NCBI GenBank assembly: GCA_944472155.2
Contig: OX235277.1
Location: forward strand, 27,104,804 to 27,168,803
Length of the DNA: 64,000 bases
Source of the DNA: Trichobilharzia szidati
Taxonomy: Eukaryota; Platyhelminthes; Trematoda; Strigeidida; Schistosomatidae
Direction: 5' to 3'
Part shown: positions 960 through 60,935 of the stretch, piece after piece
Numbering within the stretch: the first letter of the stretch is position 1
Layout: each line of letters begins with the position of its first letter
The notes under the pieces: model-generated
Database searches by the model: none
The model's input: only the letters and a program-made list of their open reading frames with translations
Told to the model about the DNA's origin: nothing
Program-made: the position numbers and the translations under genes

Positions 960-2160
960 GTGGATATTGCCCATAGTCGACTTTACCAACTCACGGATTA
1001 ACTACTTACTAGGGAAAAGTTTTGTCAACTTAGAGTACGCGTACGATCTTGTCCTCCAGGTTCAAGATACTGACAAAATACAGAGTCCTCGTAACATCTT
1101 GAGCGGAAATCTTGCTATATTTGAGATGAGATTCTCTACTCTCATGTGTAAAAAGATGCAACAGGATTGGTGTGTAGCAACATCTAGTTTTTGAAGAAAG
1201 AGAATCGGTCAATTGAGAGTATGTACAGCTTCGCTAATTTGGGAAGTTGCATCCGCCCCAATGGAGTAGTTGCTGACGAAATCTCGGCACGGATACTAAA
1301 GGCACATTTGGCATTCGCCAACTTCCACAGTCTTGGGCGTAGACGTGATATCCACCTGGCGATCAAACGACCCTGTGTGCTGATAAACCATTCGCTAAGC
1401 CTCTCTTTATGGCTATGAGACATGGCCGTTGAAAGCGGGAAACTTGAAGAGCCTAGCTGTATTTGACCACAGACGTTTTCATTCTATCTTCCATAATAAC
1501 TGGTATTATATGGTGAGCGAGGTTGACTATCAGGCAAGGAGGGACAGTCAATCGATGAAGTTGTGAAACTACATAGATCGAGATGGCTAGGGCTCGCGTA
1601 ACGCATTCCGAGCCACTTCCTTCCTTGACAAGCAGTGTCGGCTGATAGAGGATTAGGTCACAAAACAGTAAGGGTGGTCAAATCAAAACCTGGAATCAGT
1701 TCATGAAGTTAATTGGTGGGTGGTGACTAGCAGCAGAATCCAGGATGCGCATTTCGCCCTATCTGAGACTCGTCAGCTAGATGTACCTGCACCCCTCAGT
1801 GAGTGATGATATCTTTCATGAAGTCCATGACGTTTTTCACCGGTGGTCTGAGCCACCAGCGTGGTGACGTATAAATTGCCAAGCTGATTGGGGTCTTGGA
1901 GATACTAAGAACCAATGGCGTGAGACTGTTGGTAACACTGCTTAAAACTATTCTCAGTGGAGCAGATTCATTCCCTCTGTGTAACTTCTTATATCCATTA
2001 AGTCAATATTTTGTCCCATGTTACTGTTCTTTTTCCAGTATGTTTGTGTTCGCTATAGTTAGTTTGAATTTTTTATTCTTTCTACGTTTGTGTTCTATGT
2101 GGAGTGTTGTAACTTGAACTGCTGCACATCTGTGCAAAGTCCTACGTCGAAACTCATTTA
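960..2160 (+). mobile_element. RTE-like LINE (family B), degenerate RT 3' part
   Basis: Broken reading frames resemble the copy at 36100-37060: SYSFANLGSCIRPNGVVADE, a RRRDIHLAIK segment, then at the DNA level the region of the LGWLGHVLRMP block and the 3' UTR ending near a CGAAACTCATTT string. Several stops and frameshifts make it a fossil. It sits antisense inside HEATR6 intron 10. Confidence 0.7.
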
Positions 2161-10313: not shown

Positions 10314-10563
10314 GAGGCTAAGGCAGAAAACATTTTTGAAAAGGTGGTATACATCGAAACAAGGCATTTTTATTAGACGCAGTGCTCTTTATGTAAACGC
10401 TCCAATTCCTATAAAAGTTGGATTGATATAGTAAGCAGCGTAATCATAAGATTATAAGTTTCCAGACCGTAGGTGTTACGGACTTCCTGGAATAATTTGA
10501 TCGCCGAGTCAGATTGATTCATTATAAATTATTTAAATTAATCCCAGTGTGTTTAAGAGGAAA

Positions 10564-10850
10564 TCAAAACAATATCTGTTTTCTGAACGTTTCGCTGTGT
10601 ACGCCATCACAGCTTCTTCAGCAAATTTATTCGGATTTTTATTAATCATCAAAATATATATAGTCAAAAATTGTTTTACATAAATTGAAGTCAGTTTCTT
10701 TGAAGGTCATTTTTCCATGGACATTTGTACCAATAAAAATATGTAAGCAGTCATCAATCATATATTTGTAATGACTAATGACAAATTGTTGTTGTGTATA
10801 TTTTTCAATAGTTTCGGCAACCATATCTTTGACATTCACCAAAGTTTTCT
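10564..10850 (-). mobile_element. Penelope-like 3' end with hammerhead-like motif (minus copy)
   Basis: The minus strand encodes TFKETDFNLCKTIFDYIYF before a stop, then at 10622-10583 CTGAAGA, stem II GCTGTG/CACAGC, GAAA and CGTT. Its inverted partner lies at 11765-12015 and shares the string ttgatgattaataaa-like and the same hammerhead start. Confidence 0.55.
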
Positions 10851-10955
10851 CCAGAGAATTAAAGGCTTGAAGAAGTTCGGACCAGATTGCCGAACGAAAC
10901 GTTGGAATTACTCATTTCAATCTCGCTGAGACTTTACAAATATAATTTTTTACAA

Positions 10956-11333
10956 ATGTCTACTTCTCACTCAGCGCCCAAATATTTTAGAACTATTCTG
11001 TCAAATCTTGACGATAGTTCATTTGAATTATTTTGCAATCGAATTACATTAACAAAGAAACTGTGTAACTGGCACAATCATCGTGTTTTCACTCTCCGTT
11101 GTCTGCAACAGAATGCATATCCTGAATCCGTAGCTGTCGAGTCACCTGACAACTCCAGTAGGTCGAATAAAGCAGCTCAATCTTCAGAAAGAAGGCAAAG
11201 CAATAAGTCCGACAGGGTGCTTCTACTAAACTCTAATCCTAAACACCATAATTTTGAAAATACGTCTAATCATAAAATTCTAGATACTAACAGTTTGAAC
11301 AGACATGAAGGCGTGATGTTAGCTGATGCATAG
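10956..11333 (+). CDS. Small ORF inside the retrozyme-like unit, unknown function
   Basis: The ATG at 10956 opens a 125-codon frame beginning MSTSHSAPKYFRTILSNLDD and continuing FELFCNRITLTKKLCNWHNH; the C-terminal half is Ser/Asn/Lys-rich. A degenerate copy of its start is on the minus strand at 60148-60003 (MSTSHSTLNYFATLRSN). I recognise no domain. Conservation of the start in a second copy argues that it belongs to the element. Confidence 0.45.
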   Translation: MSTSHSAPKYFRTILSNLDDSSFELFCNRITLTKKLCNWHNHRVFTLRCLQQNAYPESVAVESPDNSSRSNKAAQSSERRQSNKSDRVLLLNSNPKHHNFENTSNHKILDTNSLNRHEGVMLADA

Positions 11334-11663
11334 GAAATCCGTACTAATAAATAAAAATGGATATTTATCACTAATTATTAATACTTGGTCAAAATTCTCA
11401 ACTGTCCATATCTTCTTATGGAGACGTTAACAAATGTTTTACAACTGTTCACCCACACACACATACACACTCTGTTTAAAGTGTTTAACAAAGGTAGACC
11501 AATATTTGTAAGTCCGAGGTCAAATTTTGATCACATCTCATAAAATTTTGTTTACTATACTTGTTGATACTTTTTGAATGACTTATGATTGGACAAATTT
11601 TTAAAAACAAGTAATGTTCCTTTTTATATATAAACCTTTGTTATGTTCATTTCGATTAATTTC

Positions 11664-11704
11664 CCTGAAGAAGTTCGGACCAGATTGCCGAACGAAACGT
11701 TGGA
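11664..11704 (+). ncRNA. Hammerhead-ribozyme-like motif (PLE/retrozyme type)
   Basis: CTGAAGA, one extra A, stem II GTTCGG/CCGAAC with a 9-nt loop, GAAA, then ACGT as a 4-nt palindromic stem III and U at the cleavage position. This is the best preserved of the PLE-type cores in the window. Others are at 10867-10905 (+), 10583-10622 (-), 60198-60240 (-) and 60851-60888 (+). Confidence 0.5.
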
Positions 11705-11764
11705 ATTACTCATTTCAATCTCGCTGAGACTTTACAAATATAATTTTTTACAAATGTCTTGAAA

Positions 11765-12015
11765 TAGACTTTAATATTATATGAAGCAAATAGTCTTTGA
11801 AGTTGTTCAGCTGTGTCCTTTCGATATGAAATGGCTATAGTCGATAGCCAAGATTCCTCAATTTTCTGTAGTAGCTTTTTCGGTACAAATGTCTGCCGCC
11901 AAGTGACCTTCAAATAAACTGACTTCAATTTATGTAAAAAAAATTTGACAATATATTTTGATGATTAATAAACATTCGAATAAATCTGCTGAAGAAGCTG
12001 TGGCTTACACTGCCG
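11765..12015 (+). mobile_element. Penelope-like 3' end (plus copy, inverted partner of 10564-10850)
   Basis: It shares ctgacttcaatttatgtaaa, a TGATGATTAATAAA-like string and ctgctgaagaagctgtg with the minus copy. The retrozyme-like unit sits between the two. The hammerhead-like motif is interrupted at about 12005. Confidence 0.5.
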
Positions 12016-12055
12016 CCATTGACTCCCTAGTGACCAATCAAAGTATCCAGTACAG

Positions 12056-12255
12056 TCCTACAGGAGGTCAGTCGCAAGTTTGAATAGCTTAATGGTAACG
12101 TCTCTGACTGCAGCACTCGATGTGGTCGGTTCGAATATCAGAGGGGACATGAGTTCCTTAAATTGTTTGCTTCTTTGACGAGTGACAACAAGCACGAAAC
12201 CTACGTCAATGGCTTGTTGCCGATTGCCTCCAACCATCGAACATCACGAAATGTA
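12056..12255 (+). repeat. H2 SINE (tRNA-derived, hammerhead-like), diverged copy
   Basis: A-box-like tagcttaatgg, B-box-like ggttcgaatat, then at 12172-12222 TTTGACGA, stem II remnants and GCACGAAACC, followed by TACGTC. It shares the leader gtcctacaggaggtca with the copies at 14440-14930. Confidence 0.6.
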
Positions 12256-14444: not shown

Positions 14445-14655
14445 ATATTAGATAGTTGGAGGCAATCGGCAGGAAGCCATTGACCTAGGTTTCGTGCTAG
14501 TTGGCACTCGTCAACAAGGCGTGTCTGCAACCTTGAAAGAACTCATGTCCCTTCTTTGATTGGAACCCACTTTACCCAGTGCTGCCTGCAGTCAGAAGCG
14601 TTACCACTGAGCTATTGGGGCTCGCGATTGACCTCCTGTAGGACAGTAGTAACTA
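14445..14655 (-). repeat. H2 SINE with hammerhead-like core, minus copy
   Basis: On the minus strand: leader cctacaggaggtcaatcgcg, A-box and B-box, then at 14535-14488 TTGACGA, a perfect stem II GTGC/GCAC with a CAACTA loop, GAAA, the palindrome ACCTAGGT, and cleavage-type GTC. Position C3 of the core is T in every copy. Confidence 0.65.
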
Positions 14656-14714
14656 GTGCGACGTGTCTAGTCCTTTCTTTGGTGCAGACTGAATTCTATC
14701 CAATCGAAATACCC

Positions 14715-14930
14715 ACTACAGTCCTACAGGAGGTCAATCGCGAGTCCGAATAGCTTAGTGGTAACGTTTCTGACTGCATGCAACACTGAGTGACGCGGGT
14801 TCGAATCTCAGAAGGGACATGAGTTCCTTCAAGGTTGCAGATACGCCTTGTTGACGAGTGCCAACTAGCACGAAACCTAGGTCAATGGCTTCCTACCAAT
14901 TGCCTCCAACTATCTAATATCATGACTACT
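14715..14930 (+). repeat. H2 SINE with hammerhead-like core, plus copy
   Basis: The same architecture as the copy at 14445-14655 but inverted, only about 60 bp away. The core is at 14844-14890. The two arms would pair over roughly 200 bp in a transcript crossing both. Confidence 0.7.
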
Positions 14931-41988: not shown

Positions 41989-43275
41989 TTATGTGAAATA
42001 GGTGTGAAGGTATTCTGGGAATCTAACGTGACGTCCAGAACGCGTTTTCTTAGAGTGATCGACCGAAGTGGGCAGTGGGCGAATGCCCTGACAGTCAATA
42101 GTGTGACCCAGAAAATCGAGTGAGTCAACGCCTATTTGACACTTCTGTATATTGATGGTAACACCATGTTGGCGTAACCTTTCAAATGCCAAGTCCAAGT
42201 GTCTAAGGTGAGTTTCCTTATCTGGACTGGCAATGAGGCAGTCGTCTAAGTATGCGTATACAAAGTCGAGACCGCGAAATACTTCATTGATGAAGCGTTG
42301 AAATGTTTGGGCCGCATTCCGGAGGCCGAATGGCATACGTAGAAATTCGAAAAGTCCGAAAGGCGTAATGATAGCCGTTTTCGGGATATCTTCCATTGCC
42401 ATCGGGATTTGGTTATATGCTTTAACCAAGTCGATTTTGGAGAATATGGATGCTCCAGATAACGTTGCCGTCAAGTCGTGTATGTGAGGCAAAGGGTAGC
42501 AATCAGGAGTTGTTTTGGCGTTCACTCGCCGGTAATCACCAGTGGGTCGCCAATCGTTGCTATCCTTTTTCGGTACCATATGCAATGGGGATGCCCATGG
42601 ACTATTAGATGGCCGAATGATGCCAAGGGTGAGCATATGATCGAATTCGTTTCTGGCAATTCTCAGTTTCTCAGGGGCCAGTCGTCGTGCTTTAGATGTC
42701 ACGGGCTGTCCTGAGGTTATGATGTGGTGCATAACATTGCTGGTTATGCCCGGGAGATCGTTAGATGGGCAATTGAGTTCCGGACATTTGTCAACAATCG
42801 GTTGAAAAGTTGGATCGAGGATTGCTTTCATCTTAACGATTGACAAGCTGGGGCCTACGTAAGTTATGCCTTTGATAGACAGACTAGTAGTGTTGTCAAT
42901 TAGTCGTTTACGGCGGACGTCTACGAGTAAATCATGATGATTAAGTAGGTCCGTGCCAATGATGGGCATTGTGACGTCAGCGATTAGGAAAATCCACTGA
43001 ATAGGTTTGCGTAAACCTACGTTCAGATAGACGTATTTCCGACCAAAGGTTGCAATTGGTTTTCCATTTGCAGCCTGTAGGTTGAAGTTAGGATCCTTCT
43101 GTCGATCTGCTGCTGTAGCAGGAAGGACGCTGACTTCGGCGCCTGTGTCGACTAGATATCTAGTCTGGCTAATTACATCATGGATGTAAAGTAAGCGGCT
43201 AGTGCCACCGGCGACGGTTGCCGCTAAGGCGTGCCGGCGGGATAGTTTCCCACAGACTTGGAGGCTTTGTCGAAA
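41989..43275 (-). CDS. pol: pol remnant: protease and RT fused to a Pol-tail-like end
   Basis: Open from 43275 in the -1 frame relative to gag. It has protease with [15 protein letters not shown] and a second conserved block ending IIGTDLL, then [90 protein letters not shown], catalytic [10 protein letters not shown] and [14 protein letters not shown]. It then passes in frame into [20 protein letters not shown] and stops. TRSGR..RFP is the usual extreme C-terminus of Pol in this clade, so connection domain, RNase H and integrase are deleted without breaking the frame. Confidence 0.85.
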
Positions 43276-44042
43276 TCACAAGGTTTTCGACAACATTTCG
43301 CTTCCTTGCCATAGGTGTTGTGATACCAACACCAGTCAGGATTTTTGACAGAACGTGTGTTGGACTTAGATCGTCCACGTGCGTTTTGCCGTTGAGGGGA
43401 TTTAGAACGACGGTTTGAGGAATTGCTAGGCTTGTTTGACCTAAGCATCTGCTGGACGGAGTTGATTAACTCTATCATTGCAGAATCCTTCTTCGAAGTC
43501 TGTTCGGTAACAGAGTATACTTCGGTGACTGGCCGTTTCGTTATCTCTAGAATTCTATCTGCAGAGACAGCTAAATCATCTATGAGAACACCCTGAAGTG
43601 TCACAAGTACAGTCTGAACTGACTGTGGCAGTTTGGATAAAAATAGTTCTCTAAACAGTCCTTCATCGAACTGACTTTGGCCAATGATCTCTTTCATTCT
43701 TGCCAGCATGCTCACGGCTGACTGATCTCCTAACTCGATGTTACGAAATAACTCATCCAGACGTTGTCGATCTGTGAGAACGTTTCTCTTGAGGATGGAT
43801 GCTTTTAGCAACTCGTACGAGTTACTTACCGACATCTGCAGAGTTACGCACTTGCTGAATTCCCGCGGCAGGGCGTGAATAACTGCAAGGAACTGTGAAC
43901 GTTGATCAGTTATGCCATGTTCACAAAAATCAGACTCAGCAATCTGAAACCACGTTTCAGCATTATCTGGCCAATATGGTACTAGCTGGATTGTTTTGGC
44001 GGTTGAGCGAATCTGAATAACCTTGGGGCTAGGATCACTCAT
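43224..44042 (-). CDS. gag: gag of the LTR element (272 aa)
   Basis: The start is taken at [16 protein letters not shown]; an upstream in-frame codon adds 15 hydrophobic residues that I consider leader noise. The capsid-like part contains [19 protein letters not shown] and [18 protein letters not shown], both typical of the gag of CsRn1-related elements. Near the C-terminus [18 protein letters not shown] gives the CHHC-style nucleocapsid motif of this clade instead of the usual CCHC knuckle. The frame is intact and ends at TAG 43224, overlapping pol by 52 bp. Confidence 0.88.
43245..43251 (-). promoter_or_regulatory. -1 frameshift slippery heptamer GGGAAAC
   Basis: In gag frame the bases read GTG GGA AAC, so the heptamer has the X XXY YYZ register. 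It lies inside the 52-bp gag/pol overlap, and pol is in the -1 frame. About eight bases downstream GCCGGC can pair with GCCGGT across a GC-rich stretch, a possible stimulatory stem. It fits a programmed -1 shift for Gag-Pol. Confidence 0.6.
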
Positions 44043-44137
44043 GACGAAAAGTATGCCGATAACAATATAGTACAAGAATAAACACAAAAAGGAACGAACT
44101 CACCGGGTTTATCTGCGTGTGAATTGAAGATGAAGTT

Positions 44138-46544: not shown

Positions 46545-46765
46545 TTCATCATGAGTTGACAATGGTTAAAGAACCATAGAAAAACCTGGGAGCACTGGAC
46601 AGCTCTTTCGTCCTAGTTTGGGACTCTTCATCAGTACGCACCCACTGGGATTCAAGCCCAGGACTTTCCGGTTACAAGGCAAGCTTGTAGACTATTAAGC
46701 CACTGGCACTCGATCCAATGGCCAGCCCATGATGTCTAACTTCAGCCAATTCATGACGTAGCGTA
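46545..46765 (-). repeat. H1 SINE with near-intact hammerhead core, minus copy
   Basis: On the minus strand the tRNA-like head (B-box near 46660) is followed at 46640-46594 by GTACTG, ATGAAGA, a perfect stem II GTCC/GGAC with loop CAAACTA, GAAA, GAGCTGTC and CAGTGC. Read this way only core base C3 (A) deviates. Read as CTGATGA the box is exact but stem II is shifted by three bases. Confidence 0.7.
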
Positions 46766-59999: not shown

Positions 60000-60480
60000 T
60001 TTTCAGACTGTCGAATGGTTGATGCAGAGTGAGCATAAATGTTTCTCATCACTAGTAAATGATAATTCTGATTGATATTCATATGAACTGTGATCAGGAT
60101 TTGACCGAAGAGTTGCAAAATAATTGAGCGTCGAGTGAGAAGTAGACATTTGTAAAAAATTATATTTGTAAAATTTCAGCGAAATTGAAATGATTAATTC
60201 CAACGTTTCGTTCGGCAATCTGGTCCCAACTTCTTTTTCAGGGAAATTAATCGAAATTAATATAACAGAGGTTTATATATAAGAGGAACATCTCTTTTGG
60301 TTTTTCGAAACTTTATCCAATCATGAGTCATTAAACAGGTATCAACAGGTATAATAAACCAAACTGTGATCAGAATTTGACCTCAGACTTTCAAAATTAG
60401 TCTACTTTTGTTAAAATATATATGTATATGCAGTAAACAATAGTGTGTATGGGTGAACAGTCATAAAAAATTTGTTGTTC
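60000..60480 (-). mobile_element. Hammerhead-bearing repeat (retrozyme-like family), minus copy
   Basis: The minus strand carries the motif at 60240-60198 (CTGAAAAAGAAGTTGGGACC, CCGAACGAAACGTTGG) and a degenerate start of the small ORF (MSTSHSTLNYF) at 60148. It is the inverted partner of 60690-60935. Confidence 0.6.
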
Positions 60481-60689
60481 TCATCATAAGAGGACGTAGA
60501 CAATCGAGAATTTGACCAAGTGTGACTAGTTGTTGATACATATCCAATTGTATTTATTAGTCAGGATTTGCCATGCATCAGCTAACATCACACCTTCACG
60601 TCTGTTCAAACTGTTGGGATTCACCCATATATGTAGACCTTCTGCAGTCAGTTATTCTTTATATGAACCAAAACCTTTTTGTAGAGATT

Positions 60690-60935
60690 TTGAAAGTCTG
60701 AGTTCAAATTTTGATCACAGTTCATACAATTTTGGTTTATTATACCTGCTGATACCTGTTTCATGACTCATGATCGGACAAAGTTTCAAAAAACCAAGAG
60801 ATGTTCCTTTTATGTATAAACCTCTGTTATGTTAATTTCGATTAGTTTCCCTGAAGAAGTTCGGACCAGATTGCCGAACGAAACGTTGAAATTAAACATT
60901 TCGATTTCGCTGAGATTTGACAAATACAATTTTAA
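60690..60935 (+). mobile_element. Hammerhead-bearing repeat (retrozyme-like family), plus copy
   Basis: At 60851-60888 CTGAAGA, extra A, GTTCGG/CCGAAC stem, GAAACGTT: the same core as 11664-11704. Upstream sequence (acctctgttatgttaatttc) matches the arm at 60240-60480 in opposite orientation. Confidence 0.6.

What the first reader, a model, noticed from the sequence alone, without database searches (positions are those of the whole stretch)
10867..11760. 798-bp retrozyme-like unit with hammerhead cores in its direct repeats and its own ORF
Two 96-bp direct repeats each start with a CUGAAGA-type box, 6-bp stem II and GAAA with a palindromic ACGU stem III. They enclose a 125-codon ORF whose start recurs at 60148. 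Retrozymes known to me are non-coding, so a coding version or a Penelope pseudo-LTR unit with a separate ORF would be unusual.
Basis: partly seen in the sequence, partly recalled or inferred. Interest (0 to 1): 0.8.

Follow-up and report, generated by a model that had tools for sequence, protein, structure and literature searches.

The report
Shortened Penelope-like jumping gene remnant
A 0.9-kb piece of blood-fluke DNA looks like a shortened, non-autonomous copy of a known class of jumping gene (Penelope-like elements), which are known to carry a small hammerhead ribozyme motif in their repeats; it is probably not a new coding kind of retrozyme.

Summary
The repeats are real: two identical 94-bp copies (10868-10961, 11666-11759), 798 bp apart. 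Only the second has a complete minimal hammerhead core with stem I; the first has T at the C3 position and no stem I. The 125-codon ORF (10956-11333) is not an unrelated gene: its first ~70 residues align with the N-termini of two Penelope-like (PLE) reverse transcriptase proteins of related flukes, and its nearest proteins are from Trichobilharzia regenti. Direct pseudo-LTRs with such a core, 3' ends near the ORF start, and 5'-truncated head-to-head copies at 60055-60933 are described PLE anatomy (PMC11167929, PMC3846280, PMC7761336). Best reading: a non-autonomous PLE derivative, moved in trans. It keeps about the ORF start that the anole PLE needs in its template RNA (172 nt). The coding-retrozyme claim is not supported. 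No Rfam hammerhead model matches these sites, cleavage was not tested, no autonomous partner was found, and the genome could not be searched, so copy number and period are open. New member of a known kind.

The parts
10868..11759 (+). Whole element: one 798-bp unit plus the repeated 94 bp (truncated pLTR - ORF start - 3' region - pLTR)
10868..10961 (+). 5'-truncated pseudo-LTR; hammerhead core broken at the junction (TTGAAGA, no stem I)
10956..11333 (+). 125-codon ORF; residues about 4-75 align with PLE N-termini, residues 71-125 tested alone have no PLE match
11334..11664 (+). 3' region after the ORF's stop; shared with the minus-strand copy at 60055-60615, and from about 11505 on with the copy at 60689-60933
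11661..11705 (+). Complete minimal type-I-like hammerhead core: stem I TTCC/GGAA, CTGAAGA 11665-11671, extra A 11672, stem II 11673-11678/11688-11693, GAA, palindromic ACGT 11697-11700; predicted cleavage after T11701
   Evidence: sequence; minimum-energy fold has stems I and II, -11.1 kcal/mol, but 21 of 200 shuffles fold as well (z -1.20); no Rfam match; activity inferred, not tested
11666..11759 (+). 3' pseudo-LTR, ending at +6 of the ORF start
60055..60615 (-). Related copy: end of ORF - 3' region - pLTR - ORF start up to about +95; 3-nt insertion in the core
60689..60933 (+). Related 5'-truncated copy, head-to-head with the previous one; full CTGAAGA box, stem I altered
10589..10621 (-). 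Core of a second pLTR family (different stem II), followed by an ATG at 10522 that may open another PLE N-terminus

Best explanation
A non-autonomous derivative of a Penelope-like retroelement in a bird schistosome (Trichobilharzia or a near relative). It keeps the pseudo-LTR with its minimal, dimer-type hammerhead and about the first 70 codons of a PLE ORF; reverse transcriptase and GIY-YIG endonuclease are missing. Proposed working: transcribed from the pLTR or by read-through, bound in trans by an autonomous PLE protein at the ORF-start region, reverse-transcribed at a nicked AT-rich target starting near the ORF start, with a partial second unit giving the truncated upstream pLTR. Shown here: the repeats, the core, the homology of the ORF start, the copies and their orientation. 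Inferred: mobilisation in trans, RT start, any ribozyme cleavage. This copy may no longer be mobile.
For: The ORF start aligns with the N-termini of P0004 and P0005, beginning near their second methionine; both carry RVT_1 above the cut-off and GIY-YIG below it. tblastn of P0004 finds the ORF start at 10932-11180 (E 0.002). Related copies in the window are 5'-truncated and head-to-head, as described for bdelloid PLEs (PMC3846280, passages). 3' ends lie at +6 and about +95 of the ORF; in A. [quoted passage not shown] in the anole element RT starts 111-118 bp into the ORF and the template needs its first 172 nt (PMC11167929, section 3). Minimal hammerheads without stem III are reported in PLE pLTRs (PMC7761336, passages). 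PLE RT and endonuclease fragments lie elsewhere in the window. A T. regenti protein model with the same ORF and the same end, P0001 (cluster of 6 sequences), reads on from upstream 3' region and pLTR, so the unit seems to exist in more than one place.
Against: No autonomous partner with this ORF start was found: 0 of 44 candidates of about 440-1400 aa at E<=10. P0005 gives no tblastn hit at this place at E<=0.01, and 3 of 1000 shuffles reach its score. Residues 71-125 and the 3' region have no PLE match, so a simple internal deletion is not shown. P0002 follows the ORF for only about its first half and P0003 matches only a middle part (48% and 37% of the query). CTTGAA at both ends is no secure target-site duplication: 1168 of 20000 random 20-mer pairs share a word as long. 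Copies outside the window were not seen as DNA.
Confidence: 0.85

Rival explanations
1. A coding retrozyme: self-cleaved, circularised ~798-nt RNA that encodes its own small protein.
For: Direct repeats about 800 bp apart with a hammerhead core and an open frame between them; P0001 is an open frame over the same region.
Against: ORF start aligns with PLE N-termini; 10 non-synonymous to 2 synonymous codon changes in 25 codons against the second copy; core of copy 1 broken; neither end of the element lies at the predicted cleavage site or its counterpart in copy 1; no Rfam match.
Confidence: 0.05
2. A one-off decayed PLE insertion with an internal deletion and no family of its own (a narrower form of the best explanation, not exclusive of it).
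For: Only three places in 64 kb, two of them partial; no long protein with this N-terminus found.
Against: The copy at 60055-60615 is colinear from the ORF end through the 3' region and pLTR to the ORF start, and P0001 of T. regenti ends at the same stop, so the arrangement recurs.
Confidence: 0.2
3. A PLE-mediated capture: the ORF tail and 3' region are host or foreign DNA taken up between two pLTRs (also a narrower form of the best explanation).
For: Residues 71-125 have no PLE match; bdelloid PLEs are reported to capture DNA between pLTRs (PMC3846280, passages); the second family has a 74-codon frame without PLE look upstream of its pLTR.
Against: No source gene found; for the ORF no Pfam family above its cut-off and no PDB match better than E 0.66.
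Confidence: 0.25

Closest known systems
Penelope-like elements (Penelope/Poseidon type) with hammerhead motifs in pseudo-LTRs
   Same: pLTR with minimal hammerhead lacking a real stem III, ORF start inside the pLTR, 5' truncation, head-to-head copies, 3' ends near the ORF start
   Different: No RT or endonuclease domain in the unit; only an ORF start
Short nonautonomous Penelope elements of heliconiine butterflies (PMC6685494, two passages seen)
   Same: Short, non-autonomous, Penelope-derived
   Different: The passages seen say nothing of hammerheads or retained ORF starts; other host
Metazoan non-LTR retrozymes
   Same: Non-autonomous repeats with a type-I-like hammerhead
   Different: Reported as small circular RNAs (about 170-400 nt in invertebrate tissues) with canonical hammerheads (PMC7229834, passages); this core is of the minimal PLE sort and the unit holds a PLE ORF start
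Sm-alpha-type SINE-like elements with type I hammerhead (PMC8490949, section 11)
   Same: Hammerheads of this type occur in the same window (Rfam RF00163)
   Different: Those match Rfam RF00163, this core does not

Membership tests
Penelope-like element (derivative) | ORF related to a PLE reverse transcriptase protein | tested here: met
   N-terminus only: E=1e-6 and 2e-5 for single comparisons; 0 and 3 of 1000 shuffles as high
Penelope-like element (derivative) | Direct pseudo-LTRs, the upstream one 5'-truncated | tested here: met
   94-bp repeats; only the downstream one is preceded by the 3' region seen in the 60-kb copies
Penelope-like element (autonomous) | RT and GIY-YIG domains in the unit | tested here: not met
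   No RT or GIY-YIG match in the ORF; hence at most non-autonomous
Penelope-like element (derivative) | Minimal hammerhead motif in the pLTR | tested here: met
   Full CTGAAGA box in 2 of 4 window copies (11665, 60851); broken in 10868 and 60235(-); catalysis untested
Hammerhead_1 (Rfam RF00163) | Covariance-model match | tested here: not met
   No hammerhead hit at E<=10 in either region
Hammerhead ribozyme | Self-cleavage at the predicted site | not testable with these tools
   Needs in vitro transcription
Retrozyme | Two intact hammerheads bounding a circularised RNA | tested here: not met
   At this locus copy 1 lacks C3 and stem I; circular RNA itself not testable here
   ORF start aligns with PLE proteins
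Multicopy non-autonomous family | Many copies with the same internal structure | tested here: inconclusive
   Window copies and the P0001 cluster of 6 sequences, which need not be six loci; genome search did not complete

The most novel reading that the evidence does not exclude
A natural minimal PLE: a multicopy non-autonomous family of avian schistosomes that retains just the pLTR hammerhead and about the first 170-200 nt of the ORF, i.e. the cis-acting template region that I have seen defined only in vitro for the anole element, and is moved in trans by an autonomous PLE.
Probability: 0.4. Interest if true: 0.45.

Novelty: new member of a known kind. Interest (0 to 1): 0.28.

Why it matters
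If the shortened unit is a real multicopy family, nature has done a deletion experiment: what survives in it is what a PLE needs in cis. That would bear on how PLEs choose their template and where reverse transcription starts, for which I read one in vitro system (PMC11167929), and on whether the hammerhead is needed. It does not change the picture of retrozymes.

Tried and rejected
Rfam scan of both regions at E<=10: 7 and 2 hits, all to unrelated families far below their gathering scores, no hammerhead. Pfam for the ORF: one sub-threshold immunoglobulin hit, E 0.071, taken as chance. NCBIfam and PDB by sequence: nothing convincing for the ORF. Long proteins sharing the ORF start: 0 of 44 candidates. 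Exact pLTR pattern in viral contigs: 0. Folds: the first repeat does not form the hammerhead (109 of 200 shuffles fold as well); the 60851 copy forms stem II with a shifted stem I (7 of 200); the second family's minimum-energy fold pairs part of the CTGAAGA box itself, not stem I (3 of 200). AC-rich stem-loop as in the anole element: folding 11040-11110 puts a small hairpin at about +107 to +121, but 148 of 200 shuffles fold at least as well (z 0.67), so the parallel is not supported. Divergence from P0001: 2 of 30 residues in the pLTR part, 15 of 125 in the ORF, Fisher p 0.53, no signal. Target-site duplication: see evidence against. Co-fold of two cores gave stem II in trans, not the hammerhead fold, so it says nothing either way. 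The 10:2 codon count is ungapped and its last codon lies at a gap of the alignment; without it 9:2. Second-family N-terminus, 33 residues cut by eye: 5, 59 and 4 of 1000 shuffles as high against P0004, P0005 and the window ORF; with 60 residues 38, 42 and 5 of 1000: suggestive only.

Full report
Observation. The window contains two identical 94-bp direct repeats at 10868-10961 and 11666-11759, 798 bp start to start. The bases next to them differ on both sides (T/C before, A/T after). Between them lies a 125-codon ORF, 10956-11333, whose ATG is inside the first repeat. The core motif CTGAAGA-A-GTTCGG-loop-CCGAAC-GAAACGTT occurs at 11665 and 60851 on the + strand, and with another stem II at 10621-10589 on the minus strand. 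The first repeat has TTGAAGA and no stem I, and the copy at 60235 (minus) has a 3-nt insertion. So 2 of 4 window copies of this family keep the whole CTGAAGA box; of these, the one at 11665 has a 4-bp stem I and the one at 60851 a shifted one.

Ribozyme. Rfam Hammerhead_1 matches four other places in the window, but no hammerhead model matches here at E up to 10. The anatomy (short stem I, 6-bp stem II, palindromic ACGU in place of stem III) is that of the minimal variants reported in PLE pseudo-LTRs, said to lack stem III and perhaps to cleave as dimers (PMC7761336, passages; PMC6155905, passages). The two primary papers (Cervera and De la Pena 2014; Lunse et al. 2017) are not held; I saw only their reference lines. 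The extra A between CUGAAGA and stem II is present in both families; whether other PLE hammerheads share it I could not check. In the anole PLE the ribozyme cleaved only with protein added, and mutants without cleavage still inserted (PMC11167929, section 3). So a role of this core in mobility is not to be assumed.

The ORF. Its nearest proteins are from Trichobilharzia regenti: 3 of 7 candidates at E<=1, P0001 with 88% identity over the whole query, P0002 over 48%, P0003 over 37%. The host is therefore taken to be this species or a near relative (inference; lineage). Two full-length proteins found with another PLE fragment of the window, P0004 (Heterobilharzia americana, 872 aa) and P0005 (T. 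szidati, 930 aa) (2 of 426 candidates at E<=0.001), carry RVT_1 above its cut-off and GIY-YIG below it. The ORF aligns with their N-terminal parts: 23% and 25% identity, E=1e-6 and 2e-5 for one comparison each; 0 of 1000 and 3 of 1000 shuffled ORFs score as high. In tblastn, P0004 finds the place at E 0.002 and P0005 does not at E<=0.01. Residues 71-125 alone show nothing (256 and 418 of 500 shuffles as high). In a five-sequence alignment N41 H42 R43 and R48 C49 are among the invariant columns. Against the second window copy 12 of 25 codons differ, 10 non-synonymously (9 of 11 if the last codon, at an alignment gap, is left out): no sign of protein constraint, though the stretch is short. A search for long proteins with this ORF start gave 0 of 44 candidates at E<=10, so the parent element is not identified.

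Copies and ends. The unit matches 60615-60055 on the minus strand, colinear from the end of the ORF through the 3' region and pLTR to about +95 of the ORF, and 60689-60933 on the plus strand. These two lie head-to-head, their truncated 5' ends 73 bp apart; a bdelloid PLE paper calls head-to-head the most frequently observed inverted arrangement (PMC3846280, passages). The element itself ends at +6. A pLTR that includes the first codons and an optional longer tail are described for A. vaga Pen2a; in the anole element reverse transcription starts 111-118 bp into the ORF and the template needs its first 172 nt. The present unit keeps PLE similarity over about its first 70 codons, a little more than that. 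I read this as retention of the cis-acting part; it is an inference from one other element, and the hairpin predicted at the matching place is no better than shuffles.

P0001 reads from the 3' region through the pLTR into the ORF and ends at the same stop. If that gene model is unspliced, a 3' region - pLTR - ORF junction of the shortened unit exists elsewhere in T. regenti; its DNA was not seen. It stands for six sequences, which need not be six loci. The genome itself could not be searched.

Neighbourhood. PLE RT and endonuclease fragments lie at about 5.5-6.0, 21.3-23.6, 27.5-28.5, 51.5-53.1 and 58.7-59.3 kb. The element sits between two inverted copies of a second pLTR family, 10594-10737 and 11876-12013, whose core is followed by a frame that may be another PLE N-terminus (suggestive only).

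Literature. A search on six non-autonomous Penelope terms gave one paper, which mentions short nonautonomous Penelope elements in butterflies. In the listings (several of them capped, at 12 of 4,177) I saw no description of this unit in a schistosome; that is a statement about listings and passages, not whole texts. PLE RT sequences of T. szidati are in print (PMC4465651, passages). What is said of PMC8969392 (5' truncation, tandem second copy forming the pLTR) rests on passages.

Verdict. A shortened, probably trans-mobilised Penelope-like element: a new member of a known kind. The retrozyme reading fails at this locus on two points: one of the two cores is broken, and the ORF start belongs to another element's protein.

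Noticed in passing
window 1738-1782 (-), 46592-46637 (-), 14476-14520 (-), 14845-14889 (+): Type I hammerheads above the Rfam gathering score, perhaps Sm-alpha-like SINE elements; the pair near 14.5-14.9 kb is inverted.
   Followed up: no
window 10645-10866 (-): 74-codon frame just upstream of the second pLTR family, no Pfam match, weak PDB (E 1.5) and NCBIfam (E 0.021) hits taken as chance; could be DNA captured between pLTRs.
   Followed up: partly
window 10594-10737 (-) and 11876-12013 (+): Second pLTR family as an 83% identical inverted pair that encloses the element.
   Followed up: partly
window 12034-12200 and 14700-14876: 78.5% identical stretches; the second overlaps a Rfam hammerhead.
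   Followed up: no
window 41989-44099 (-): Two long overlapping open frames that look, by eye, like gag and pol of an LTR retrotransposon.
   Followed up: no
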